From positions 1,931,501 to 1,995,500 of the forward strand of contig CP054675.1 in assembly GCA_013348845.1 (NCBI GenBank): 64,000 bases of DNA, written 5' to 3'. Source of the stretch: Candidatus Tepidiaquacella proteinivora (GTDB lineage: Bacteria > Bacteroidota > Ignavibacteria > Tepidaquicellales > Tepidaquicellaceae). The notes below the pieces were generated by a model that worked only from the letters and a program-made list of their open reading frames with translations, searched no databases and was not told the origin of the DNA. Every line of letters begins with the position of its first letter. Positions within the stretch are counted from its first letter, which is position 1. Below, piece after piece: positions 2,047-37,376 of the stretch. Position numbers and translations under genes: made by a program.

Positions 2047-2586
2047 ATGAAAAATTTTTTTATTATTTTGTTTGCATTTTTCATTGTTTTAATTTTCGGG
2101 TTTCATTTTCAAACTAATCAGTTTAAATATGTAGGGGTTACAAAGTGTGTAAGTTCTTGTCACAAATCAGAAAGACAGGGAAAACAACTCGAAATATGGA
2201 AAAACTCAAAACATTCAATAGCATGGAAAACTCTTGAAACAGATGCAGCGAAAATAATTGCTGCTGATAAAGGTTATAAAGAGATGCCAACAGAAATACC
2301 TGAATGTATCAGGTGTCATTTAATTGGCAGAGATTTCACTCCGGAAGATTTATCCGCTACATTTGAAATACAGGAAGGGGTACAATGTGAAAGTTGTCAT
2401 GGGGCTGGTTCCGGGTATATGAAAATGTCAATAATGAAGGATGTAAATAAATCAATTGAAAATGGTTTGATAATATATAAAGAAATAAATAAACTTTGTA
2501 TAAATTGTCATAATGAAAATAGCCCTATAAAAAAGGATTTTGATTTTGAAAGTTCCTGGGATAAAATAAAACATTATAAACCTTGA
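2047..2586 (+). CDS. Tetraheme cytochrome c, cytochrome c554-like
   Basis: The 179-residue protein has one N-terminal hydrophobic segment (residues 3-20), a signal peptide or anchor, and so is exported. Four c-type heme sites are visible: CIRCH (87-91), CESCH (114-118), CINCH (151-155) and an unusual first site CVSSCH (34-39), which has three residues between the cysteines instead of two. The text around the first site (KYVG...C...CH, then IW..SKH) resembles the cytochrome c554 family of periplasmic multiheme electron carriers. The gene opens a run of exported cytochromes and a predicted barrel, so a periplasmic electron-transfer role is likely. Its stop overlaps the TTG start of the next gene (TTGA), suggesting translational coupling. 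The electron donor and acceptor cannot be read from the sequence. Confidence 0.83.
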   Translation: MKNFFIILFAFFIVLIFGFHFQTNQFKYVGVTKCVSSCHKSERQGKQLEIWKNSKHSIAWKTLETDAAKIIAADKGYKEMPTEIPECIRCHLIGRDFTPEDLSATFEIQEGVQCESCHGAGSGYMKMSIMKDVNKSIENGLIIYKEINKLCINCHNENSPIKKDFDFESSWDKIKHYKP

Positions 2587-3905
2587 ATAGAATAAAAGGA
2601 ACATATATAAAATTTTATTACTATTTTTTATTTATTTTAATATTGATTGGTATTAATATATCAAATGCTCAAAATTTAAATTTTAGAGTAAGTTCATTTT
2701 TTTATTCCTTTGAAAGATATGATTCATTAAGCCCATCAGGAGAAAAGTATTCACAAAAATTTTTAAAAGGGTATCAAAATTTACTCTTTGATATTACAAA
2801 GAAGGATTGGTCATTTAATACCAACTTTCAAATTGAAGAAGATGTAATAGGGAAAACAGGTAAAGGATTTAATTATAGGTTTTACTCCGTTTTTATAAAA
2901 AGAAATAATATTTTTAATCTTATTGATTTGAAAGTTGGAAGGCAGTATGTTTCTGCTGGAACAGGTCGTGGAACTATTGATGGGCTTTTCTTGAAACTTA
3001 AACTTGGGAAGGAAAAAGAATATCAGTTGAAAAGTTATATTGGTGCCAATACTCCCTTTTCTTATGATTTCAGTAATTACGGGAAACTTTCAGAAAATTA
3101 TTCTTTTGGTGCTCAATTTTCTTATTATGGAGTAAAGGACTTATCTCTCTCTTTAAGCTATTTTGTAAAACGTAGCAAACCGGAATCTTATTATACAATC
3201 AGGCCCGATAGTATTTTCAATCCTAAAGAATTATTAATAGATATCGATGAATTTGACAGTAAACTTACCGGAATAGATTTAGTTTACGACAAGAAGTATT
3301 TATCTTTTTTTAGTAAACTTTATTATGATATTAATTTAAAAAGATTTTATCGTTGTGAAGTAAATTTAAGTTATAATATTTTTAAAACTCTTAGATTAAA
3401 TGTTGGTTATAATTATAGGGAACCGCAAATTAGTTATAATACAATATTTTGGGTATTTAATCACAAACAAACTCAGGAATTGGAAGGGGGGGTAGATTTT
3501 ATCTTAAAAGAAAAATTTAATATTTATACAAGGATTTCTAATGTATTTTATAATAATGATAATTCATTAAAAATTTCTATTGGTTTTCTACATCCATCTT
3601 ATGGAATATCTGTAATTAAACATACAGGGTATTCTGGTGAATCTGAAGGGATTTATGGTTATTTTAATTATGAAATAATTAATAAAAAATTATCATTAAC
3701 GTCAGGACTTAACTTTTCAAGTTACAAGTTAGATAATTATCTAAACTCCAGAGAAACTGCTATAGCAGGAATAATAGGATTTGTTTATTGTCCAATAAAT
3801 AAATTGAATTTAAATATGCAAGGTCAGTTTATCAAAAACAGAATTTATAAATTCGATACCAGGATTTTAGTCGGTATCAGTTATTGGCTTTTTACAAAGT
3901 TATAA
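2583..3905 (+). CDS. Predicted outer-membrane beta-barrel protein of the cytochrome cluster
   Basis: The 440-residue protein starts with a signal peptide (hydrophobic residues 11-27, ending SNAQ). The rest alternates short aromatic, amphipathic strands with polar turns. Strand endings such as YSFGAQFSYYG and LRLNVGYNYRE, with abundant Tyr and Phe, are typical of an outer-membrane barrel. I see no heme motif and no family I can name with certainty. The start is TTG at 2583, overlapping the stop of the cytochrome before it. An ATG start that keeps the signal peptide is not available. Lying between a tetraheme cytochrome and a 14-heme cytochrome, it is a candidate for the porin that lets a multiheme cytochrome cross the outer membrane. 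That role is inferred from context only. Confidence 0.72.
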   Translation: MNRIKGTYIKFYYYFLFILILIGINISNAQNLNFRVSSFFYSFERYDSLSPSGEKYSQKFLKGYQNLLFDITKKDWSFNTNFQIEEDVIGKTGKGFNYRFYSVFIKRNNIFNLIDLKVGRQYVSAGTGRGTIDGLFLKLKLGKEKEYQLKSYIGANTPFSYDFSNYGKLSENYSFGAQFSYYGVKDLSLSLSYFVKRSKPESYYTIRPDSIFNPKELLIDIDEFDSKLTGIDLVYDKKYLSFFSKLYYDINLKRFYRCEVNLSYNIFKTLRLNVGYNYREPQISYNTIFWVFNHKQTQELEGGVDFILKEKFNIYTRISNVFYNNDNSLKISIGFLHPSYGISVIKHTGYSGESEGIYGYFNYEIINKKLSLTSGLNFSSYKLDNYLNSRETAIAGIIGFVYCPINKLNLNMQGQFIKNRIYKFDTRILVGISYWLFTKL

Positions 3906-3917
3906 TATTTAAATCTA

Positions 3918-5147
3918 ATGAGAATCTTGAAATATTATTCTGTTTTTATCGTTTGTTTAATAATTTATATATTGTTGTCTTCTTATTCTTTACACTTTAA
4001 TATTGAGTATCAGAGAAATGATAACAGAGATATAATAAAATTTAATCACAGCATTCATATCAAAGAATTTAAAATAAAATGTATTACCTGTCATAGAAAA
4101 GCGAATAACTCTGAAAATGCCGATGATGCTCTAACTCCTGATAAACCATCCTGTGCTAAATGTCATGATGTTAATGATGAAAACAGTTGTTCAATTTGTC
4201 ATTATGAAAAAGTTTTTAAAAAATTAATCCCTACAGTTAAAGAATTAAATTTTTCTCATAAAATTCATCTTAGTTTAGGGCAGGAATGTGGTAATTGTCA
4301 TATCAATATGATGAATTATAAATATTCTGGGGACAATCCTCAAAAATTTCCATCTATGGAATTTTGTTACAATTGCCATAATTCTGAAAAAGATATTTCA
4401 AATTCATCTTCAGGAGAATGTGAAGTATGTCATAAAAATCTGACTAACCTCATACCCCTTAATCATCTGAATTCTAATTTTTTAAATGAACATAAATGGG
4501 TATTTGAAGTTTCAGGTACAAATGATAATTGTATGATGTGTCATAGTGATTATTTTTGTCAGGTGTGTCATTCTCCTTTAGGATACACTGGCGAAAATAA
4601 AAAAAATAATTTTTATGCACCTTACTATACAAGAAATAACAGCAAAAGGATAGATAGAGCCGAGCTGCAAAAATTAACTCTTGTACATGAGCTCAATTAT
4701 TTATATAATCACGGAATAGATGCCAAACACAAGAGTTTTGAATGCAAGACCTGTCATAATGTTTCAGACTTCTGCAGCTCCTGTCATTTAAATAATGGAA
4801 ATATTATCACAGGCATTTTACCCAAAAGTCATTTAGAACCTAATTTTACTACTTTTGGAGTCAATACTGGTGGAGGTTTACATGCAAAATTAGCAAAACA
4901 GGATATTGAATTCTGCCAGAGTTGTCATGATGCTAATGGAGCTGATCCTATTTGTATTCGTTGTCATTTTGATAACGATGGAATTAAAGGTACAAATCCT
5001 GCAACGCACGAAAAAAATTTTTTAAAAGATGAAAAAGGTATCTGGCATAATACAAATGGAGCTATTTGTTATTTATGTCATACTGATTTAAATGCGAAAC
5101 CAAATGGCAGAAAAGGAATAGGATTCTGTGGATATTGTCATTATTAA
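3918..5147 (+). CDS. Fourteen-heme c-type cytochrome
   Basis: The 409-residue protein has an N-terminal hydrophobic signal or anchor (residues 8-24) and 14 CXXCH heme-binding motifs spread over the whole chain, from CITCH near residue 55 to CGYCH at the last residues. Many additional His residues (FNHSIH, FSHKIH, NHLNSN) can serve as distal ligands, as in bis-His multiheme cytochromes. It most likely conducts electrons in the periplasm or through the envelope. It follows the predicted barrel protein by 12 bases and precedes a heme lipoprotein, which suggests that the three act as one conduit. I do not recognise a named family beyond multiheme cytochrome. The motif count is direct reading; the conduit role is inference. 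Confidence 0.85.
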   Translation: MRILKYYSVFIVCLIIYILLSSYSLHFNIEYQRNDNRDIIKFNHSIHIKEFKIKCITCHRKANNSENADDALTPDKPSCAKCHDVNDENSCSICHYEKVFKKLIPTVKELNFSHKIHLSLGQECGNCHINMMNYKYSGDNPQKFPSMEFCYNCHNSEKDISNSSSGECEVCHKNLTNLIPLNHLNSNFLNEHKWVFEVSGTNDNCMMCHSDYFCQVCHSPLGYTGENKKNNFYAPYYTRNNSKRIDRAELQKLTLVHELNYLYNHGIDAKHKSFECKTCHNVSDFCSSCHLNNGNIITGILPKSHLEPNFTTFGVNTGGGLHAKLAKQDIEFCQSCHDANGADPICIRCHFDNDGIKGTNPATHEKNFLKDEKGIWHNTNGAICYLCHTDLNAKPNGRKGIGFCGYCHY

Positions 5148-5161
5148 AAAAAATATTTAAA

Positions 5162-6001
5162 ATGTTTAAGTTAAAGTACATATACTTTTTATTGTTTATT
5201 GGAATAATAATTTTTTTTAGTAATTGCAGTAAAATTTATGATGATTTGATATTTGCCCCTAAAGATGGTCAACATCCAGATGGCTGGTTAATAAAGACAT
5301 CTTTAAATTTTCACGGTTTATATATTTATAACCACAAACTATGGAATCTTTCTACTTGTCAAAAATGTCATGGTTTAGATTATTGGGGAGGCTCTTCTGG
5401 TAAAGGTTGTTATGATTGTCATAAAGCCAGTCCGGAAGATTGCAGATTATGCCATGGTAATAATGTTAATACTATTTACCCACCAAAAGCACTAAACGGA
5501 GATACTTCTATACAATATATTGGGGTAGGGACTCATTCATCTCATTTAAAACCAAAGTATTCCGCTTCTACCGGATGTATCTGTTGTCATAAAAAGATTA
5601 CTTCTTTTGAAGACCCTGTTCACATTGGAAATAATCCTGATGGTATTGCAGAGGTTACTTTTGATTCAACATCCGTTAAAATTACAGGTGGAATTAAACC
5701 AATCCCAGTTTGGGAAAGAAATACAGGCATTTGTGATGGTTCTTATTGCCATGGTAATTTTGTTAATGGAAATTATAGATTAATTAACCCACCGATAAAT
5801 CCTTTGTGGACTTTACCAGCATCTGTGAAGTGTGGGTCTTGTCATGGAGATCCGCAAACAGAAAATCCTTTACCCGGTGGTAGTCATCCACAGGGATATA
5901 CAATATATAATTGTTACCAGTGCCACGGGTCGGTTATTAATTCTCAAGGTATAATTATCAATAAAAATTTTCACATAAATGGTATTATAAATTGGAACTG
6001 A
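5162..6001 (+). CDS. Multiheme cytochrome lipoprotein with CX4CH...CXXCH domain
   Basis: With the ATG start at 5162 the protein has 279 residues. It has a lipoprotein signal (hydrophobic residues 7-19, then FFSNC with the lipid Cys at 22). An in-frame TTG at 5135 would overlap the preceding gene and only adds nine residues before the signal. Six CXXCH motifs (CQKCH, CYDCH, CRLCH, CICCH, CGSCH, CYQCH) and one CX4CH motif (CDGSYCH) are present. The pair CX4CH...CGSCHG matches the repeat known from Geobacter cytochromes as the CxxxxCH...CXXCH domain (TIGR01904 type). It is probably anchored to the outer membrane and may form the outer or inner face of the putative conduit with the barrel and the 14-heme cytochrome. 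No donor or acceptor is evident. Confidence 0.82.
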   Translation: MFKLKYIYFLLFIGIIIFFSNCSKIYDDLIFAPKDGQHPDGWLIKTSLNFHGLYIYNHKLWNLSTCQKCHGLDYWGGSSGKGCYDCHKASPEDCRLCHGNNVNTIYPPKALNGDTSIQYIGVGTHSSHLKPKYSASTGCICCHKKITSFEDPVHIGNNPDGIAEVTFDSTSVKITGGIKPIPVWERNTGICDGSYCHGNFVNGNYRLINPPINPLWTLPASVKCGSCHGDPQTENPLPGGSHPQGYTIYNCYQCHGSVINSQGIIINKNFHINGIINWN

Positions 6002-6104: not shown

Positions 6105-6776
6105 ATGAATAAATACTTTATATATTTATTATTTGCTTTATTTTCTTTGTATATTGTTTTATCATTTTTATTACCTATACCTTATATTCCTCTTTTAGGA
6201 GAAAAAGCAAGAATAATTTTTTATCATGTACCAACCGCATGGCTTGCAGTAATAGCATTTTTTATTTCCATGATGAATTCCATTACTTATTTAATTAAGC
6301 GGAATATCATTAATGATATAAAAGCATTTTCTTCAGCTGAACTGGGTTTTTTGTTTTGTATTCTTGCTACTATTACTGGTTCAATCTGGGCAAAATTTAG
6401 CTGGGGTAGTTTCTGGAATTGGGATCCCCGTGAAACTTCAATTATTTTTTTATTACTGATTTATGGTGCTTATTTTGCTCTTCGTTCTGCAATTGACAAT
6501 TACGAACAAAAAGCACGTTTGGCTTCTGTTTATTCGGTAATTGCATTTGTTACAGTTCCTTTTTTTATTTTTGTTTTACCAAGAATTGTTGAGTCTTTAC
6601 ATCCCGACCCCATAATTAATCTTAGAGGTGAATTGAATATCGACTCAAATATGATGGCTTTATTTATTTTATCTCTGGTATCTTTCACTATGCTTTTTAT
6701 TTGGCTATATAGTTTAAAAATAAGAATAGAAAAATTGTTTTTTGAAAATTATTTAAAAATAAATGAATACAATTAA
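6105..6776 (+). CDS. ccmC: Heme exporter / heme-handling protein CcmC
   Basis: The 223-residue membrane protein has six predicted transmembrane segments and the tryptophan-rich heme-binding motif WGSFWNWDPRETS, the WWD domain of the CcmC/CcmF/CcsA superfamily. The HVPTAW sequence before it supplies a periplasmic His of the CcmC type. Length and topology fit CcmC, which loads heme onto CcmE in cytochrome c maturation system I. Placement next to ccmD, ccmE and ccmF supports this. The neighbouring cytochromes are the expected clients. The ATP-transporter genes ccmA and ccmB are not in the window and must be elsewhere if present. Confidence 0.9.
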   Translation: MNKYFIYLLFALFSLYIVLSFLLPIPYIPLLGEKARIIFYHVPTAWLAVIAFFISMMNSITYLIKRNIINDIKAFSSAELGFLFCILATITGSIWAKFSWGSFWNWDPRETSIIFLLLIYGAYFALRSAIDNYEQKARLASVYSVIAFVTVPFFIFVLPRIVESLHPDPIINLRGELNIDSNMMALFILSLVSFTMLFIWLYSLKIRIEKLFFENYLKINEYN

Positions 6777-6915: not shown

Positions 6916-7287
6916 ATGAATAAAAAATTAAAGATTTTTATCGGTATTATTGTAATTTTGTTTTTTTCTATTTATGGGTTTATTACATTGCTGTCAAGCA
7001 AAATTGACTATGTTGATTTTAATACTGCAGCTAAACATTCCGGAAAAGAATTCGAGGTCAGGGGGAAATGGCTAAAAGATATGGAATATAAAAGTGATAT
7101 GGAGTTTGTCTTTTTTATGAAAGATGATAATAATACAATTATGAAAGTAATTTATGAAAAACCGAAGCCAAATAACCTTGAACACGCTGAAACAATTGTT
7201 GTAAGGGGTAGAGTTAAAGAAAATATTTTTTACGCTACACAAATTCTTACAAAATGCCCTTCTAAATATGAATCTATAAATAAATAA
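6916..7287 (+). CDS. ccmE: Cytochrome c maturation heme chaperone CcmE, cysteine (CXXXY) variant
   Basis: The 123-residue protein has an N-terminal membrane anchor (residues 5-27) and then an OB-fold beta domain with the family pattern VDFNTAAKHSGKEFEVRGK and ETIVVRGRV. CcmE binds heme covalently in the periplasm and hands it to CcmF. In most bacteria the heme-binding residue is the His of an HXXXY motif. Here the corresponding stretch is TKCPSKY, with Cys 114 and Tyr 118. This matches the CXXXY type of CcmE known from some archaea and sulfate reducers, which goes with a CcmABCDEF pathway lacking CcmH. No His lies nearby to substitute. It is followed after 3 bases by ccmF. Confidence 0.9.
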   Translation: MNKKLKIFIGIIVILFFSIYGFITLLSSKIDYVDFNTAAKHSGKEFEVRGKWLKDMEYKSDMEFVFFMKDDNNTIMKVIYEKPKPNNLEHAETIVVRGRVKENIFYATQILTKCPSKYESINK

Positions 7288-7290
7288 TCT

Positions 7291-9573
7291 ATGTTTGGAA
7301 AAATCCTTATTTATATTACTTTTGTATTTGCATTACTGACAGTTTTATTTTATCTGCTTCATTATAATAAAAAAATAAAATCTCTCTTATTCCCACGTTT
7401 TACATTTCATATTTCTGTCATTTCCGTTTTACTTGCATCATCTTATTTGTTGAGTTTAATACTTAACCATCAATTTCAATATACTTATGTTTGGGAATAT
7501 AGCAGCAGAGATTTGAGTTTCCCTTTACTTTTATCAACTTTTTATGCCGGGCAGGAAGGTAGTTTTCTTTTATGGTTATTGTTTTCTGTAATTATTGGTG
7601 TTTTTCTCCTTACTTTTATTAAAAAATATGAAGAATTTGAAAGTCCTGTTATGATTTTTTATTCGCTTGTTATTGTATTCTTAAGTCTCTTATTAATTTT
7701 ACAAAGTCCATTCCAGTATGTATGGGAGACTTTTCCAAAAGAGGCAAAAGTTGGTTTTGTTCCACAGGACGGCAGAGGTTTAAATCCGATATTACAGAAT
7801 TTCTGGATGGTTATTCATCCACCAGTATTATTTATTGGATTTGCCTCACTTGCAGTTCCGTTTTCTTTTTCTGTTTCTGCTTTATTAACCCGTAAATATC
7901 AAAAATGGATTTATCTGACTTTACCCTGGCTTTTATTTTCCACAGGAATACTTGGCGCAGGTATTATTTTAGGAGCTTTCTGGGCTTATGGGGTACTTGG
8001 ATGGGGTGGTTATTGGTCTTGGGACCCCGTAGAAAATTCATCTTTGATACCCTGGATTTTTAGTGTTGCGGCTGTTCATACAATGATTGCACAACAGATT
8101 ACTAAAAAATATGTAATAACTAATATTTTACTTAATATTTTTTCTTTTATTTTTGTACTTTATTCAACTTTCCTAACCAGAAGTGGTATTTTAGCTGATG
8201 CTTCTGTTCATTCTTTTGTTAAACCTGGAAATGAAATTTATATTACACTTCTTTCTTTCATAATTTTATTTTTGATTTTATCATTATCTTTATTCTTTTA
8301 CAGATTTAAAAAAATAAAAGTCTATGCTGATTCTGTGGATAAAGGATTAAAGGTTACCTCTAAAGAAAACATTATTTTTATTGGCTCTGTAGTATTAATT
8401 ATTTCCGCCTTCTTGATTTTGATTGGTACAAGTTTACCGATTGTTTCCTCTTCAAAAGTTGATGCAGATTCTTACTATAATCAGACTAATATGATATTGG
8501 CAATTGCATTTGTTTTGCTTGCTGGTATTGCATTTTTTCTTTCCTGGGAAAAGAATATCGAAAAAGACCTTAAAGAATTGTGGATAATATTATTAATTAG
8601 CTTTATAGTTACTGCTGTTATTGGGTTTGTTGCTGTTCCAAATTTATATTTTTTATTATTTATTTTTACCTGTATCTTTACCTTATTTGTAAGCGTTGTG
8701 GCAATTGTAAAAAAACTCAGAATAAGAAATTTTAAAATTGGTTTTGCAATCGGACATTTAGGATTAGTTCTTCTCTTCCTTGGAGTAATTGGCTCTGCTA
8801 AATACTCTGAAGAAACAAATCTTGAGTTAGAAAAAAATGTACCTTACGAAGCTTTTGGCTATAAATTTACATATTTTGGTGATGAAGAATTTTTAGATAA
8901 TAATAATAAAAAATATTATTTACTTATAAAGGTTGAAAAGGATAACCAGGAAATAATTATGAAACCTGTAATGTATTACAGCTCATATATGAATAGTGTA
9001 ATGAAAGAACCTCACATTAAAAGCTTTCTGACAAAAGACTTATATATTTCCCCTTTAGAGTTGATAGCACCACAACCGTTTTCAGATGAGCAAATTCTTA
9101 CTTTTAAAACCAATGAAGTAAAAGAATTTGATAAATTGAAAATGAAATTTTTAAATGTTGATGTATCACAAATTCCTATGCGCTCTGGCAATATAAACAG
9201 CAGAAAATATTCAGTATTTGCAAATTTTGAGATATATAAAGAAGATAAGAAAGAACTTTTAAAACTGGAATTAATTTATAATTCTGATAATTCTGAGCCG
9301 GTTCCAATGAAATCAACTATTGATACCAATTATACTTTTTACTTTACTGGTATAAATGTAGATAATGATGGAAATGGTACTGTTGTTAAAGTTGCTGTTG
9401 TAGATTCAAAAAATAACATTAAACTGGAAAATGAAAAATTAATTGTTTCTGTATCAGTTAAACCTTTTATTGGAATCTTGTGGATTGGTTCAATTTTATT
9501 GATTGTTGGATTTTTCTATTCTATTTTCAACAGAGTTAAAATGTTAAAAAATACTACTGATGTAAAAAAGTGA
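7291..9573 (+). CDS. ccmF: Cytochrome c heme lyase CcmF
   Basis: The 760-residue polytopic membrane protein contains the WWD heme-handling motif WGGYWSWDPVENSSLIPW, and the downstream LTRSGILADASVHSF that is characteristic of CcmF. Conserved His residues flank the motif (IHPPVLF, VHSF). About 15 membrane segments surround a periplasmic domain near residues 500-720, and one final helix closes the chain near the C-terminus. The protein attaches heme from CcmE to apocytochromes. It is somewhat longer than the usual 650 residues because of the enlarged C-terminal soluble region. It ends the ccmC-D-E-F run and no terminator is obvious behind it. The 112 bases to etfB hold no gene that I can support. 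Confidence 0.92.
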   Translation: MFGKILIYITFVFALLTVLFYLLHYNKKIKSLLFPRFTFHISVISVLLASSYLLSLILNHQFQYTYVWEYSSRDLSFPLLLSTFYAGQEGSFLLWLLFSVIIGVFLLTFIKKYEEFESPVMIFYSLVIVFLSLLLILQSPFQYVWETFPKEAKVGFVPQDGRGLNPILQNFWMVIHPPVLFIGFASLAVPFSFSVSALLTRKYQKWIYLTLPWLLFSTGILGAGIILGAFWAYGVLGWGGYWSWDPVENSSLIPWIFSVAAVHTMIAQQITKKYVITNILLNIFSFIFVLYSTFLTRSGILADASVHSFVKPGNEIYITLLSFIILFLILSLSLFFYRFKKIKVYADSVDKGLKVTSKENIIFIGSVVLIISAFLILIGTSLPIVSSSKVDADSYYNQTNMILAIAFVLLAGIAFFLSWEKNIEKDLKELWIILLISFIVTAVIGFVAVPNLYFLLFIFTCIFTLFVSVVAIVKKLRIRNFKIGFAIGHLGLVLLFLGVIGSAKYSEETNLELEKNVPYEAFGYKFTYFGDEEFLDNNNKKYYLLIKVEKDNQEIIMKPVMYYSSYMNSVMKEPHIKSFLTKDLYISPLELIAPQPFSDEQILTFKTNEVKEFDKLKMKFLNVDVSQIPMRSGNINSRKYSVFANFEIYKEDKKELLKLELIYNSDNSEPVPMKSTIDTNYTFYFTGINVDNDGNGTVVKVAVVDSKNNIKLENEKLIVSVSVKPFIGILWIGSILLIVGFFYSIFNRVKMLKNTTDVKK

Positions 9574-27768: not shown

Positions 27769-28626
27769 ATGGCTCAAGAAGAAAAAAACAATGGAGAAGT
27801 AAGAATTGGCTTTTTTATTTGCCACTGCGGCGTAAATATCTCATCAACCGTAAATGTTGCTGAAGTTAGGGATTACATCGCTACATTACCTAATGTTGTT
27901 ATATCGCAGGATTATAAATTTATGTGTTCAGATCCAGGTCAGGATATGATAAAAAATGCTATTAAAACACATAAACTTAACAGGGTTGTAGTAGCTGCCT
28001 GCTCACCTTTAATGCACGAATTAACATTTAGAAATGCCTGCGAGAAAGCTGGTCTGAATAGATATTTATTCCAAATGGCTAACATAAGAGAGCATGTTTC
28101 ATGGGTGCATGATGACAGAGTTAAAGCCACAACTAAAGCAAAAGCACATGCAAGAGCAGCAGTTAGTCGGGTTGCATATCAGACACCACTTGAGATTACC
28201 AAATCCAAAATAAATCCTGATACATTAATTATCGGTGGTGGAATAGCAGGTATTCAAGCCGCATTAGAAATTGCTGATTCTGGCAATAATGTAATTCTTG
28301 TTGAAAAAGAACCTTCCATAGGTGGAAAAATGGCTCTCTTTGATAAAACTTTTCCAACTCTTGATTGTTCTGCGTGTATATTAACTCCTAAGATGGTCTC
28401 TGTAGGACATAGAGAAAATATAAAACTCTATAGTTGGGCTGAAGTTGTTTCTGTATCAGGATATCTTGGTAACTTTAAAGTAAAGATAAAAAAACACGCA
28501 AGGTATGTAGATACTGATAAATGTACTGGCTGTGGTCAATGCTGGAGTCATTGTCCTGCAACTAAATTCCCGACGAGGAGACAAATAATTATTGGTAAAG
28601 ATACTTTAGTAAATGAGAAAAGATAA
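27769..28626 (+). CDS. hdrA: N-terminal half of HdrA (split heterodisulfide reductase flavoprotein)
   Basis: This 285-residue protein covers only the first part of HdrA, which usually has about 650 residues. Residues 13-115 are the HdrA N-terminal domain with Cys 18/20, C53 (MCSDPGQ) and C78 (AACSPLMHE). The FAD-binding GGGIAG is at 156-161, and the HdrA-specific DCSACILTPKMV is at 199-210. The first inserted ferredoxin cluster is C252, C255, C258, C262. The chain then ends after 23 residues. The remainder, starting at the next conserved block, is found in the gene at 35125. The stop is followed at once by an unrelated gene, so this is a true end and not a frameshift. A complete FAD site requires both halves to assemble. 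Confidence 0.93.
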   Translation: MAQEEKNNGEVRIGFFICHCGVNISSTVNVAEVRDYIATLPNVVISQDYKFMCSDPGQDMIKNAIKTHKLNRVVVAACSPLMHELTFRNACEKAGLNRYLFQMANIREHVSWVHDDRVKATTKAKAHARAAVSRVAYQTPLEITKSKINPDTLIIGGGIAGIQAALEIADSGNNVILVEKEPSIGGKMALFDKTFPTLDCSACILTPKMVSVGHRENIKLYSWAEVVSVSGYLGNFKVKIKKHARYVDTDKCTGCGQCWSHCPATKFPTRRQIIIGKDTLVNEKR

Positions 28627-28999: not shown

Positions 29000-29420
29000 A
29001 GTACTATATAGCCAAACATTCAAAATTATTGGTAGAGATTTTGCTAACGCTGGTGCTGTTTCAGTTTCAATTAAAAGATTTTTAAAAGAGATACAAATTA
29101 AACCAGAAATTATTTATAGAGTTTCTATATGTTGTTACGAAGCAGAAATGAACGTAGTTATGTATGCAATGATTGGTACACTTGATTTTACAATTACCCA
29201 AGATCAAATTATTATAATTGTGGAAGACGAAGGACCCGGAATAGAAGATATTGAAAAAGCAATGCAGGAAGGATATTCAACTGCTACTCCTGCAATGAGA
29301 GAAATGGGATTTGGAGCAGGTTTAGGTTTACCAAATATTAAGAAGAATGCTGATGAATTCAATATACAGTCTGAAGTTGCTAAAGGAACAAAATTGACAA
29401 TTAAAATTAATTATAATTGA
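28989..29420 (+). CDS. GHKL-type ATP-binding protein 1 (anti-sigma/RsbW-like)
   Basis: From the ATG at 28989 the protein has 143 residues. A TTG six bases earlier is also possible. It is a stand-alone HATPase domain: N-box region CCYEAEMNVVMYA, G1 VEDEGPGIEDIE and G2 FGAGLGLPNIKKNAD. It resembles RsbW/SpoIIAB-like serine kinases and the ATPases that accompany clostridial [FeFe]-hydrogenase operons. It lacks HisKA and a sensor region, so it probably phosphorylates or binds a partner. It overlaps DRTGG protein 1 by 11 bases and the next gene by the TTGA junction, indicating tight coupling of the three. Confidence 0.8.
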   Translation: MEDEVLYSQTFKIIGRDFANAGAVSVSIKRFLKEIQIKPEIIYRVSICCYEAEMNVVMYAMIGTLDFTITQDQIIIIVEDEGPGIEDIEKAMQEGYSTATPAMREMGFGAGLGLPNIKKNADEFNIQSEVAKGTKLTIKINYN

Positions 29421-30730
29421 CACAAATTAAACAGGACATAAAGAGTTACAGAATTTGTTTTGACCCGCAGAAATGCGTTGGTGATATGAATTGTATGCGG
29501 GTTTGTCCTGTCGGAGCGATTAGAATCAGAGAAGGAAAAGCAAAATACTTAGAAGATAAGTGTATTGAATGTGGGGAATGTGTTAAAGTATGTACCTATA
29601 ATGCTATTTATCCTTTAACAAATACACTAGGTGATTTTCAAAAATATAAATATACAGTTGCCTTACCTTCTTTAGCTCTATATAGCCAATTTGATAGGAA
29701 TATAAAACCAAGAACCATACTAAATTCTTTAACAAAAATTGGTTTTAATGAAGCTTATGATATTTCGCATGCGGCAATTTCTGTGGTAAAAGCAACTAAA
29801 AAATATATACTTGCACATAAAGAAAATAAACCACTTATTTCGCCTTTTTGCCCGACTTGTGTAAAAATTATTCAGATGAAATATATGGAGATGACATCAA
29901 GATTAATCCCGGTCATTTCTCCTATAGAACTTGCAGCAAAAGCAATAAGAGAAGAAGTTTCCAAAAGGATGAAATTAGATAAAAATGATATTGGTATTTT
30001 TTATATTACCCCCTGTTCATCAAAACTACTCCTTATATCAGAAGAAGATAAGCATTATACAGATGTTAACGGCGCAATTCCATTTAATGAAATTTATAAC
30101 TCATTGTACACAGCAATCTATCAGTTAAGAAAAAGCTCCGTACCGGAAATTGAGCATTATGATATTAGTGGTTTTGGTTTGAATTTCATTCGGACTGGCG
30201 GAATTTCTCAAATGATGGGTATTGATAATAGCATTTCTGTTTCAGGAATAAATAATGTCTTATATATACTTGATGAAATTGAAAAAGGTAAAATGCATAA
30301 TGTAGATTTTGTTGAATTAAATGCTTGTCAGGAAGGTTGCCTTGGCGGTCCAATGACTGTCGAAAATGTATATATTGCCAGAAGTAATCTTCTAAATCTG
30401 ATAAATTATTTTGGAGAGACTAAATTACCAATTGGAAAAAAGGATGAATATGAATCTTACAATCTTCAGCAAGATAATTTATTTCATCCCCATGAACACA
30501 ATAATAAAAAGATTGATATTAAAATTGCTTTAAGTAAAATGGCAGAACGGAGAAAGATTTTAGCATCTTTACCTAAAATTAATTGTGGAGCGTGTGGTTC
30601 TCCAAATTGTGAAGTGTTTGCAGATGATGTTGTTAATGGTGAAACTGAATTGTTTGATTGTGTTATACTTAGGAATTTGAAGTTAAAAAAAATGTTAGAA
30701 GATGCAGAATTTGGTATGTCAGGAGAATAA
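29417..30730 (+). CDS. [FeFe]-hydrogenase-like protein, probably a sensor
   Basis: The 437-residue protein has two N-terminal [4Fe-4S] motifs (Cys 20-30 and 49-59). An H-cluster-like domain follows: SPFCPTC (C145), ITPCSSK (C200) and NACQEGCLGGP (C304, C308). A C-terminal FeS domain CGACGSPNC (C390, C393, C398 and C415) ends the chain. The four cubane-binding cysteines of the H-cluster are kept. The proton-transfer Cys just before C145 is Phe, and the Met of both MPC and EXMAC is replaced by Thr and Asn. This fits the non-catalytic, presumably H2-sensing, group of [FeFe] proteins. TTG is the start, overlapping the stop of the gene before. The maturases HydE, HydF and HydG are not in the window. 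Whether an active H-cluster is built is uncertain. Confidence 0.86.
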   Translation: MTQIKQDIKSYRICFDPQKCVGDMNCMRVCPVGAIRIREGKAKYLEDKCIECGECVKVCTYNAIYPLTNTLGDFQKYKYTVALPSLALYSQFDRNIKPRTILNSLTKIGFNEAYDISHAAISVVKATKKYILAHKENKPLISPFCPTCVKIIQMKYMEMTSRLIPVISPIELAAKAIREEVSKRMKLDKNDIGIFYITPCSSKLLLISEEDKHYTDVNGAIPFNEIYNSLYTAIYQLRKSSVPEIEHYDISGFGLNFIRTGGISQMMGIDNSISVSGINNVLYILDEIEKGKMHNVDFVELNACQEGCLGGPMTVENVYIARSNLLNLINYFGETKLPIGKKDEYESYNLQQDNLFHPHEHNNKKIDIKIALSKMAERRKILASLPKINCGACGSPNCEVFADDVVNGETELFDCVILRNLKLKKMLEDAEFGMSGE

Positions 30731-35124: not shown

Positions 35125-36894
35125 ATGATTACTGTAAATATAGATGGCGTAGAAGTTCAGGTGGCAGAAGAAACCACTATTCTGAAAGCAGCAGAAAAAG
35201 CAGGAATCTGGATTCCAACAATGTGTTATTCTGAAATACTTGAACCCTACGGAGTATGCCGGTTATGTAGTGTTGAAATTATTAGGGGAAAGCGTTCTCG
35301 TATAGTTACTGCATGCAATTATCCTTTAAGGATGAATGGTATCACAGTGAGAACAAATTCACCTAAAATTCAAAGTATCAGAAAAATTATAATGGAATTG
35401 ATGCTCTCTCGCTGGCCTAATGTTGAAGTAGTTAAGAATATGGCAAAGGAATTAGGTGTTACTGAACCAAGGTTTGAATCCCTTGAAAAAGATGAAAGTC
35501 CTGATGCCTGTATTTTATGTGGAGCATGTGTTAATATTTGCAGAGATGTGGTAAAAGCGAATATACTTTGCTTTGCAAATAGAGGTATTAAGCGGGAAGT
35601 TGTTTTACCTTATGAAGAGAAAAATAATCAATGTATTGTTTGTGGTGCCTGTGCATACGTTTGTCCTACAGGACATATTAAACTAAAATCGCTTGAATAT
35701 GAAAGAGGAGCTTTAAGAGATTTTTATTTAGGTCCTAAAACTGCAATTAATATTCCAACACTACAAGCAATACCAAGGGTTCCGGTAATTGATGAAAATT
35801 CCTGTATTAAAAAGAAAACAGATGGGTGTGGTATCTGTTCTACATTCTGTGAACCTGAGGCAATTAAATATGATATGGAAGATGAAGAAATTGAAGTAGA
35901 AGTTGGACAAATATTAATTACAACAGGTTTTAAACTTATTGATGTGACTCAAATGCCTCAATACGGTTATGGAAGACTTGATAATGTTTATACCTCACTT
36001 GAATTTGAACACTTATTAAATTCTACTGGTCCAACAGGAGGAACTATCCTGTGTAAAGATGGAACTGAGCCAAGAGCCGTTGCAATAATCCATTGTATAG
36101 GTTCAAGAGATGAAAATTATAAAAAATATTGCTCAAGGGTATGTTGTATGTACGCATTGAAATTTGCGCATCTTGTTAAGGATAGAACTTCTGCGGAAGT
36201 CTATCAATTTTATATTGATATGCGTGCTTTCGGTAAAGGGTATGAGGAATTTTATAAAAGACTGCTTGATGAAGGAGTCAATATGATTAGAGGAAAAGTA
36301 GCAGAAATAGTTGAAGGGCCGGTTAGGAATGGGCAAAAGCCATATTTGCTTGTAAGATGTGAGGATACACTAATTGGAAAGTTTAGAGAAATTCCTGTAG
36401 ATATGGCAATTTTATGTCCTGCATTTGAGCCTTCAGAAGATGCTGAAAAAATTAGAAAAATTTTATCAATTAGTCAAAGTCCGGATAAGTTTTTCCTCGA
36501 ACGGCATCCAAAATTAGACCCGGTAGCAACTATGACAGATGGTATATTTATCGCTGGGGCTGCACAAGGTCCTAAGGATATACCTGATTCAGTTGCGCAA
36601 GCATCAGCTGCTGCTGCAAGGATTCTCTCCTTAATATCTGTAGGTGAAGTTGCAATTGAACCTATCAAGGCAAATATCATAGAAGAATATTGTAGTGGTT
36701 GTAGAATTTGTAATAACTTATGTCCATATACAGCAATTACCTTTAATGAAGAAAAGAAAGTTTCAGAAATAAATGAAATGCTTTGCAAAGGATGTGGAAC
36801 ATGTGTTTCTGCTTGTCCGGCTTCTGCAATTAAAGGTAAAGGATTTACAGATACTCAAATACTTGCTGAATTGGAAGGATTACTTTCTGTTTAG
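35125..36894 (+). CDS. Fusion of NuoG/HydA-like ferredoxin domain with the C-terminal half of HdrA
   Basis: The 589-residue protein has a [2Fe-2S] domain (C34, C45, C48, C64) like the N-terminus of NuoG and HydA. Two [4Fe-4S] motifs follow (C129-C139 and C170-C180), but no His-Cys3 cluster. From about residue 206 it is HdrA: INIPTLQAIPRVPVID, the second half of the inserted ferredoxin (C227, C235, C238, C242), the FAD domain with GYGRLDNVYTSLEFEHLL, CIGSRDE, YCSRVCCMYA and FYIDMRAFGKGYEEF. Two C-terminal [4Fe-4S] motifs follow (C523-C533 and C554-C564). It begins exactly where the HdrA fragment at 27769 ends. It probably joins the NuoEF-like module to HdrBC and the Mvh hydrogenase. I know no named family with this order. 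Confidence 0.92.
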   Translation: MITVNIDGVEVQVAEETTILKAAEKAGIWIPTMCYSEILEPYGVCRLCSVEIIRGKRSRIVTACNYPLRMNGITVRTNSPKIQSIRKIIMELMLSRWPNVEVVKNMAKELGVTEPRFESLEKDESPDACILCGACVNICRDVVKANILCFANRGIKREVVLPYEEKNNQCIVCGACAYVCPTGHIKLKSLEYERGALRDFYLGPKTAINIPTLQAIPRVPVIDENSCIKKKTDGCGICSTFCEPEAIKYDMEDEEIEVEVGQILITTGFKLIDVTQMPQYGYGRLDNVYTSLEFEHLLNSTGPTGGTILCKDGTEPRAVAIIHCIGSRDENYKKYCSRVCCMYALKFAHLVKDRTSAEVYQFYIDMRAFGKGYEEFYKRLLDEGVNMIRGKVAEIVEGPVRNGQKPYLLVRCEDTLIGKFREIPVDMAILCPAFEPSEDAEKIRKILSISQSPDKFFLERHPKLDPVATMTDGIFIAGAAQGPKDIPDSVAQASAAAARILSLISVGEVAIEPIKANIIEEYCSGCRICNNLCPYTAITFNEEKKVSEINEMLCKGCGTCVSACPASAIKGKGFTDTQILAELEGLLSV

Positions 36895-36944: not shown

Positions 36945-37376
36945 ATGTCAGAAGAGAAAAAACAAAACGGATGGGACCCTAAAATAGCTGCATTCCTTTG
37001 CAACTGGTGTACATATACTGGTGCAGACCTTGCAGGGGTATCAAGATTAAAATCTTCTCCATGTGTGAGGATTATCAGAGTAATGTGCAGTGGAAGGGTT
37101 GACCCAACATTTGTGTTAAAAGCATTTGAAAATGGGGCAGATGGTGTTTTTATTGGAGGATGTCACTTTGGTGATTGCCACTATTCAGAGGGTAATTATA
37201 AAACTTTTAGACGAGTGGAATTTTTAAAAGTGTTTCTTGAACAATTTGGAATTAATCCGAAAAGATTAAGATTGGAATGGATTTCTGCTTCAGAAGGAGA
37301 TAAGTATGCAGAGACAACCCTCGATTTTGAGCGAGAGATAAGAGAACTTGGACCTTTAAAACTTATAAAAGAATAA
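36945..37376 (+). CDS. mvhD: MvhD-like [2Fe-2S] subunit (F420-non-reducing hydrogenase delta)
   Basis: The 143-residue protein has the MvhD pattern AAFLCNWCTYTGADLAG, SSPCVRIIRVMCSGRVDP and GVFIGGCHFGDCHY, with cysteines 19, 22, 40, 48, 73 and 78. MvhD docks the [NiFe] hydrogenase MvhAG onto HdrA and passes electrons to its FAD. It follows the NuoG-HdrA fusion gene by 50 bases and precedes mvhG by 27 bases, the expected context. It is a stand-alone protein here, not fused to HdrA as in some archaea. Confidence 0.93.
   Translation: MSEEKKQNGWDPKIAAFLCNWCTYTGADLAGVSRLKSSPCVRIIRVMCSGRVDPTFVLKAFENGADGVFIGGCHFGDCHYSEGNYKTFRRVEFLKVFLEQFGINPKRLRLEWISASEGDKYAETTLDFEREIRELGPLKLIKE

What the first reader, a model, noticed from the sequence alone, without database searches (positions are those of the whole stretch)
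2047..6001. Candidate porin-cytochrome conduit: tetraheme cytochrome, barrel, 14-heme cytochrome and heptaheme lipoprotein
Four adjacent genes encode, in order, a periplasmic-type tetraheme protein, a predicted outer-membrane barrel, a protein with 14 CXXCH and a lipoprotein with six CXXCH plus one CX4CH. This is the composition of known porin-cytochrome complexes used to move electrons across the outer membrane, but the sequences do not look like Mtr or the Geobacter OmbB-OmaB-OmcB set. It is followed by heme-attachment genes. Together with a hydrogenase it would suggest use of solid or extracellular acceptors.
Basis: partly seen in the sequence, partly recalled or inferred. Interest (0 to 1): 0.75.

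Follow-up and report, generated by a model that had tools for sequence, protein, structure and literature searches.

The report
Ignavibacteria outer-membrane electron conduit operon
Four neighbouring genes encode a haem-filled outer-membrane channel that most likely lets this anaerobic bacterium pass respiratory electrons out of the cell; it belongs to an already described type that I find across the bacterial class Ignavibacteria, here without the usual genes that would feed it.

Summary
Window 2047-6001 carries four co-directional, nearly touching genes: a c554-like tetrahaem cytochrome (3 CXXCH + 1 CX3CH), a plug-less ~22-strand outer-membrane barrel, a 14-CXXCH cytochrome and a lipoprotein with 6 CXXCH + 1 CX4CH, followed by ccmC, ccmE and ccmF.

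The porin-cytochrome (Pcc) reading is well supported but not new. Shi et al. 2014 described such a cluster in Ignavibacterium album (IALB_1837-1840, including a 400-aa 14-haem protein). I find the same four genes in the Melioribacter roseus type-strain genome (L219; a reported Fe(III) reducer) and throughout the class. The barrel and 14-haem genes were adjacent in every locus where the contig allowed a test.

New here: the family is essentially restricted to Ignavibacteria; the barrel model is the size of a TonB-receptor barrel without a plug; the 14-haem protein is c7/ActA-like, not MtrA-like; and in most relatives the core sits beside large multihaem cytochromes that look like quinol dehydrogenases. 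The window genome (2.40 Mb) has neither of the two types searched, so NrfH is my best guess for the donor. The window's hydrogenase is cytoplasmic, with no direct tie to the conduit.

Verdict: a real new member of a known kind, of moderate interest.

The parts
2047..2586 (+). c554-like tetrahaem cytochrome, putative periplasmic electron carrier (3 CXXCH + 1 CX3CH)
   Evidence: PF13435 59.6 bits, above cut-off; family profile matches cytochrome c554 1bvb, E 3.5e-13; haem Cys/His invariant in 24 aligned sequences, first site CX3CH or CXXCH
2583..3905 (+). outer-membrane beta-barrel of the conduit
   Evidence: AlphaFold2 mean pLDDT 88.7, 22 long strands plus one short pair over residues 30-439, no plug domain; VIA-align best Z 21.0 to the Fiu barrel and 19.8 to BtuB; adjacent to the 14-haem gene in relatives
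3918..5147 (+). 14-haem c-type cytochrome proposed to fill or line the barrel
   Evidence: 14 CXXCH; c7-like PF14522; profile matches the 12-haem protein 3ov0 (E 7e-26) and ActA of alternative complex III
5162..6001 (+). outer-membrane lipoprotein cytochrome, 6 CXXCH + 1 CX4CH, proposed outer-face relay (ORF listed from TTG 5135)
   Evidence: TIGR01904/PF09698 above cut-off; lipobox Cys and CX4CH conserved in the family
6105..6776 (+). ccmC-like haem export/handling protein
   Evidence: PF01578 93 bits; TIGR01191 129.6 bits, below its 186-bit cut-off
6916..7287 (+). ccmE haem chaperone
   Evidence: PF03100 47.4 bits, above cut-off
7291..9573 (+). ccmF haem lyase
   Evidence: PF16327 and PF01578 above cut-off

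Best explanation
[quoted passage not shown] The 14-haem cytochrome is proposed to thread or plug the ~22-strand barrel and form a continuous haem chain. The tetrahaem c554-like protein delivers electrons from the inner membrane through the periplasm, and the seven-site lipoprotein relays them on the outer face to an extracellular acceptor (Fe(III)/Mn(IV) minerals, humics, electrodes or partner cells). ccmC, ccmE and ccmF next door serve haem attachment. In most relatives electrons plausibly enter from adjacent large multihaem quinol dehydrogenases. The window genome lacks both types searched, so a general quinol dehydrogenase, most likely NrfH, would have to feed the conduit. Shown here: gene set, order, haem motifs, predicted barrel fold, conservation, and absence of the two usual donor types. 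Inferred: assembly of the complex, localisation, direction of flow, donor and acceptor.
For: Gene content and motifs. Barrel model confident, matching 22-strand TonB-receptor barrels without their plug. Same four-gene order across the class: a barrel ORF lies directly upstream of the 14-haem gene in 73 of 80 named loci; of the other seven, six are at contig ends and one (L125) has a fragmented barrel. Same genes in the M. roseus type strain: L219 comes from a single 3,300,414-bp contig, the published chromosome length; M. roseus reduces Fe(III) according to work cited in PMC6137239. Conduit and 18-haem donor-type gene co-occur: 41 of 45 conduit-positive genomes have the donor-type gene, against 1 of 14 conduit-negative ones, and that one is 67% complete. 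Window copy under purifying constraint: all haem sites intact at 62-71% protein identity to its sister species, dN 0.2 with dS above 1. Published precedent: Shi 2014.
Against: No complex was modelled. The AlphaFold2 model of the 14-haem protein is reliable only to about residue 160 (mean pLDDT 59.8), so threading of the barrel is untested. The window genome lacks both donor types, which could mean another partner or a changed role. The co-occurrence counts are not independent across related genomes. No expression or activity data exist for this organism, and I found none for these genes in relatives.
Confidence: 0.8

Rival explanations
1. A porin-cytochrome conduit that runs inward: electrons from an extracellular donor (Fe(II), another cell, a cathode) enter through the same proteins to feed quinone or periplasmic reductases such as NrfA.
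For: Conduits of this build can be wired either way (MtoAB/PioAB are linked to Fe(II) oxidation, PMC5566968). The window genome lacks both usual donor types but keeps NrfHA.
Against: An outer-surface lipoprotein cytochrome is more typical of reducing systems. Relatives place the core beside quinol-dehydrogenase-type cytochromes. M. roseus, which has the same genes, is reported as an Fe(III) reducer.
Confidence: 0.12
2. A decaying remnant in this lineage: the dedicated donors are gone and the conduit is no longer used.
For: Both donor types are absent from G000 and G001. G017, the next lineage out in the 14-haem tree, also lacks both and has no tetrahaem gene directly upstream.
Against: All 25 haem sites, the barrel frame and the lipobox are intact in the window. 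dN is about 0.2 against dS above 1 between congeners, similar to the neighbouring ccm genes. All four genes are kept in three species of the genus.
Confidence: 0.06
3. The barrel is an ordinary transporter that happens to lie beside soluble periplasmic cytochromes serving another reductase.
For: No sequence match to MtrB/PioB or any named porin family that covers the barrel. Barrel folds alone say little about function.
Against: Adjacency is conserved across the class. The barrel is wide and has no plug, so it would need a filler. Three cytochrome genes, one a lipoprotein, travel with it.
Confidence: 0.02

Closest known systems
Ignavibacterium album pcc cluster IALB_1837-1840 (Shi, Fredrickson and Zachara 2014, PMC4245776)
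   Same: Same components as described: associated periplasmic cytochrome, porin, 14-haem cytochrome of about 400 aa, outer-membrane cytochrome with an atypical haem motif. Ignavibacterium-named loci and M. roseus show the same four genes.
   Different: 14-haem proteins from Ignavibacterium-named loci are about 43-45% identical to the window copy. The window genus has ccmC, ccmE and ccmF directly downstream and glgA upstream.
OmbB-OmaB-OmcB of Geobacter sulfurreducens
   Same: Barrel plus periplasmic multihaem cytochrome plus outer-membrane multihaem lipoprotein, encoded together.
   Different: Geobacter has 8 and 12 haems; here 14 and 7, plus a tetrahaem gene. Sequence homology could not be tested here; Shi 2014 leaves the I. 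album proteins outside its five groups.
MtrCAB / MtoAB / PioAB
   Same: Same design: a cytochrome inside an outer-membrane barrel.
   Different: No MtrB_PioB match in 63 barrels. The 14-haem protein is not of the decahaem MtrA/DmsE family. About 22 strands, against 28 predicted for MtrB/MtoB/PioB in Shi 2014.
ActA of alternative complex III and the 12-haem c7-repeat protein 3ov0
   Same: c7-type fold and haem spacing in the N-terminal part of the 14-haem protein (profile E 7e-26 to 3ov0; VIA Z about 7 to ActA).
   Different: These are not outer-membrane conduits; a weak match to a common building block.

Membership tests
Porin-cytochrome (Pcc) conduits | Outer-membrane barrel gene adjacent to a periplasmic-type multihaem cytochrome gene | tested here: met
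Porin-cytochrome (Pcc) conduits | Outer-membrane multihaem cytochrome in the same cluster | tested here: met
   Lipoprotein-type cytochrome at 5162-6001, invariant lipobox Cys in 26 sequences; localisation itself inferred
Porin-cytochrome (Pcc) conduits | Porin of about 18-22 strands without a plug domain | tested here: met
   22 long strands plus a short pair, barrel begins at residue 30; matches 22-strand TonB-receptor barrels
Porin-cytochrome (Pcc) conduits | The cytochrome sits inside the barrel as one complex | not testable with these tools
   No multimer prediction available; single-chain model of the 14-haem protein poor beyond residue 160
Porin-cytochrome (Pcc) conduits | Electron transfer across the outer membrane | not testable with these tools
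   Needs biochemistry or electrochemistry
Ignavibacteria pcc cluster (IALB_1837-1840 type) | Tetrahaem, barrel, ~400-aa 14-haem and atypical-motif lipoprotein genes in this order | tested here: met
   Window, M. roseus type-strain genome L219, Ignavibacterium-named loci L175 and L179; the I. album sequence itself was not retrieved
MtrCAB/MtoAB/PioAB | Porin of the MtrB_PioB family | tested here: not met
   No such match among 63 barrels at E up to 0.1
MtrCAB/MtoAB/PioAB | Decahaem MtrA/DmsE-type periplasmic cytochrome | tested here: not met
   14 haems; no TIGR03508 match for the window protein, weak match in 6 of 69 family members
OmbB-OmaB-OmcB (Geobacter Pcc) | 8-haem periplasmic and 12-haem outer-membrane cytochromes | tested here: not met
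   14 and 7 sites here
OmbB-OmaB-OmcB (Geobacter Pcc) | Sequence homology of the porin to OmbB | not tested
   No Geobacter sequence obtained; literature differs (PMC4245776 against PMC7399161 and PMC6137239)
Cytochrome c554 family | PF13435 domain above its curated cut-off | tested here: met
   59.6 bits against 20.8 for P0001

The most novel reading that the evidence does not exclude
In this streamlined anaerobic genus the conduit has been cut loose from the large multihaem quinol dehydrogenases that accompany it in other Ignavibacteria, and is fed by the small NapC/NrfH-type dehydrogenase otherwise used for nitrite reduction: an independent parallel to CymA feeding Mtr in Shewanella, and a minimal extracellular-respiration chain.
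Probability: 0.3. Interest if true: 0.5.

Novelty: new member of a known kind. Interest (0 to 1): 0.35.

Why it matters
It shows that the I. album-type conduit is a conserved family of most sampled Ignavibacteria rather than a curiosity of one strain, so extracellular respiration is probably an ancestral or early trait of a class found in sediments, hot springs and anode biofilms. The window genus is a natural stripped-down case (in the window genome no cytochrome oxidase, no NrfD-type complex, and no dedicated donor of the two types searched), which makes the question 'what feeds the conduit?' directly testable with few candidates.

Tried and rejected
Mtr membership: rejected on the family scans and haem count. 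Chance CXXCH: rejected. Barrel unlinked to the cytochromes in relatives: rejected. First thought that the 17-18-haem genes upstream in relatives were extracellular wires: rejected after reading them; the 17-haem protein has a NapC/NrfH-like membrane N-terminus and the 18-haem protein a C-terminal TM segment with a cytochrome-b neighbour. LptD match of the barrel (PF04453, 23.3 bits over 50 residues, 10 of 63 members): taken as a common barrel-strand resemblance, as LptD has a periplasmic jelly roll absent here. Sequence search of the barrel profile in the PDB: nothing. MtrB did not appear among the 50 VIA rows shown, which excludes nothing. The 14-haem single-chain model was not usable beyond about residue 160. 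Direct comparison with Geobacter OmbB was not possible. An expression paper on M. roseus (PMC5492636) held no mention of porin, multiheme or ferrihydrite.

Full report
WHAT IS THERE. The four genes are present as described, on one strand, within a few bases of each other. The tetrahaem gene and the barrel gene overlap at the stop/start, and the last two genes are 14 bases apart if the lipoprotein starts at ATG 5162, so one transcript is likely (inference). Motif counts: tetrahaem protein 3 CXXCH + 1 CX3CH; barrel none; third protein 14 CXXCH; lipoprotein 6 CXXCH + 1 CX4CH. Shuffled versions of the third protein never gave more than 3. Pfam/NCBIfam: cytochrome c554 domain (PF13435, above cut-off) in the first, c7-type (PF14522, above cut-off) in the third, and the Geobacter-type CX4CH/CXXCH domain (PF09698/TIGR01904, above cut-off) in the fourth. 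ccmC, ccmE and ccmF follow directly.

CONSERVATION. In 59 genomes (the window's own and 58 relatives) the barrel was found in 45 and the 14-haem protein in the same 45, plus one weak hit in G040. In the fetched regions the order tetrahaem - barrel - 14-haem - lipoprotein recurs across families. A named-genome scan found 284 relatives of the 14-haem protein; the best 80 are Ignavibacteria or records labelled Bacteroidetes/Chlorobi that branch among them. Of these 80 loci, 73 have a barrel ORF immediately upstream; six of the others lie at contig ends, and L125 has the barrel in fragments. In a sample of 395 genomes of the phylum, 57 of the class have the family at E 1e-30 and one genome outside the class (G186) has a 12-haem relative beside large multihaem genes. 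The 14-haem count varies: 11-12 in some families, with the lipoprotein then often carrying five CXXCH and two CX4CH. The first haem site of the tetrahaem protein is CX3CH or CXXCH depending on the lineage.

STRUCTURE. The barrel model is confident (mean pLDDT 88.7) with 22 long strands and one short pair, starting at residue 30. The best structural matches are barrel domains of TonB-dependent receptors (Fiu Z 21.0, rmsd 4.5, 349 aligned; BtuB Z 19.8, rmsd 4.2, 345 aligned). Those barrels have 22 strands and are filled by a plug domain (established knowledge) that the window protein lacks. I infer that something must fill this lumen and that the cytochrome next door is the natural candidate; this was not modelled. 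The 14-haem model is reliable only for about the first 160 residues, and that part resembles ActA of alternative complex III weakly (Z about 7). By profile the closest solved sequence is 3ov0, the 12-haem c7-repeat protein (E 7e-26). Between 31 and 54 of the 69 family members also match the c7 triheme, QrcA and DsrJ models.

CONTEXT AND DONOR. In most relatives of the order the core is preceded by a 17-haem protein with a NapC/NrfH-like N-terminus and an 18-haem protein with a C-terminal membrane segment and a b-type cytochrome partner; on the Melioribacter side, by a 16-haem protein with a cytochrome-b part. Their role as quinol dehydrogenases is inferred from these features. Of 45 conduit-positive genomes, 41 have the 18-haem gene type; of 14 conduit-negative genomes only one has it, an assembly 67% complete. 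This supports a functional link, with the caveat that related genomes are not independent. The exceptions are G000 (the window), G001, G016 (which keeps the 17-haem gene) and G017. G002, of the window's genus, keeps the 18-haem/cytochrome-b pair elsewhere. The tree of the 14-haem protein places the window with G002, then G001, then L143/G017, so the donor-poor state clusters. Besides the conduit, the CXXCH scan shows three multihaem loci in the window genome: NrfHA, an octahaem tetrathionate-reductase-type cytochrome with a cytochrome b561, and another octahaem membrane protein. The scan's listing stops at 2.24 Mb, and the remaining 166 kb was read directly without finding any. COX1 and NrfD families were not found. 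NrfH is therefore the most plausible quinol dehydrogenase for the conduit; this is inference at perhaps 30%.

IS IT STILL USED? All haem sites are intact. Protein identity to the nearest congener is 62-71%, with dN about 0.2 and dS above 1 (dS near saturation), like the neighbouring ccm genes. This argues against decay.

WHAT IS KNOWN. Shi et al. 2014 list a pcc cluster in Ignavibacterium album: IALB_1840 (periplasmic cytochrome), IALB_1839 (porin), IALB_1838 (400 aa, 14 haem motifs, the largest Pcc periplasmic cytochrome then known) and IALB_1837 (outer-membrane cytochrome with an atypical motif) (PMC4245776). Later papers report Pcc clusters in M. roseus and in Ignavibacteria MAGs from bioanodes and Chocolate Pots (PMC7399161, PMC6137239). 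I confirmed the four genes in the genome whose single contig has exactly the published M. roseus length. The finding is therefore a new member of a published kind. What I could add is its class-wide distribution, the fold and size of the barrel, the c7/ActA character of the 14-haem protein, and the absence of the usual donors in this genome.

THE HYDROGENASE. The window's hydrogenase (about 25.5-39.9 kb) consists of Vhu-type large and small subunits, HdrA/HdrB-like proteins and NuoF, a cytoplasmic system; it gives no direct support for extracellular acceptors.

Noticed in passing
window 27769-28626, 35125-36894, 36945-37376: The HdrA2 model (777 positions) is divided over three ORFs: 1-262, 262-640 (behind a NuoG/HoxU-like N-terminus) and 642-774, in a cluster with HdrB-like, NuoF-like and Vhu-type [NiFe] hydrogenase genes.
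   Followed up: partly
window 29417-30730: ORF resembling [FeFe]-hydrogenase (TIGR04105 124.7 bits, well below its 450-bit cut-off), beside ORFs that read like histidine-kinase-type ATPases and a PHP phosphoesterase; possibly regulatory.
   Followed up: no
L075 5624, L115 5806, L116 12372, L182-L192: Several relatives carry an 8-9-haem cytochrome near the conduit; the L115 copy ends in a type IX secretion sorting domain, so it may be a secreted surface cytochrome.
   Followed up: no
A3 alignment (tetrahaem family), first haem site: The first haem motif switches between CX3CH and CXXCH among closely related genomes: a natural series for asking what the extra residue does.
   Followed up: no
L220 (G186, outside the class): A 12-haem relative of the 14-haem protein beside a 19-haem and a 17-haem/cytochrome-b gene, suggesting that the module also exists elsewhere in the phylum.
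   Followed up: partly
L095 7757-10216 (own genome, 381 kb): An 819-aa octahaem protein with C-terminal membrane helices and no close named family, lying near restriction-modification-like genes.
   Followed up: no
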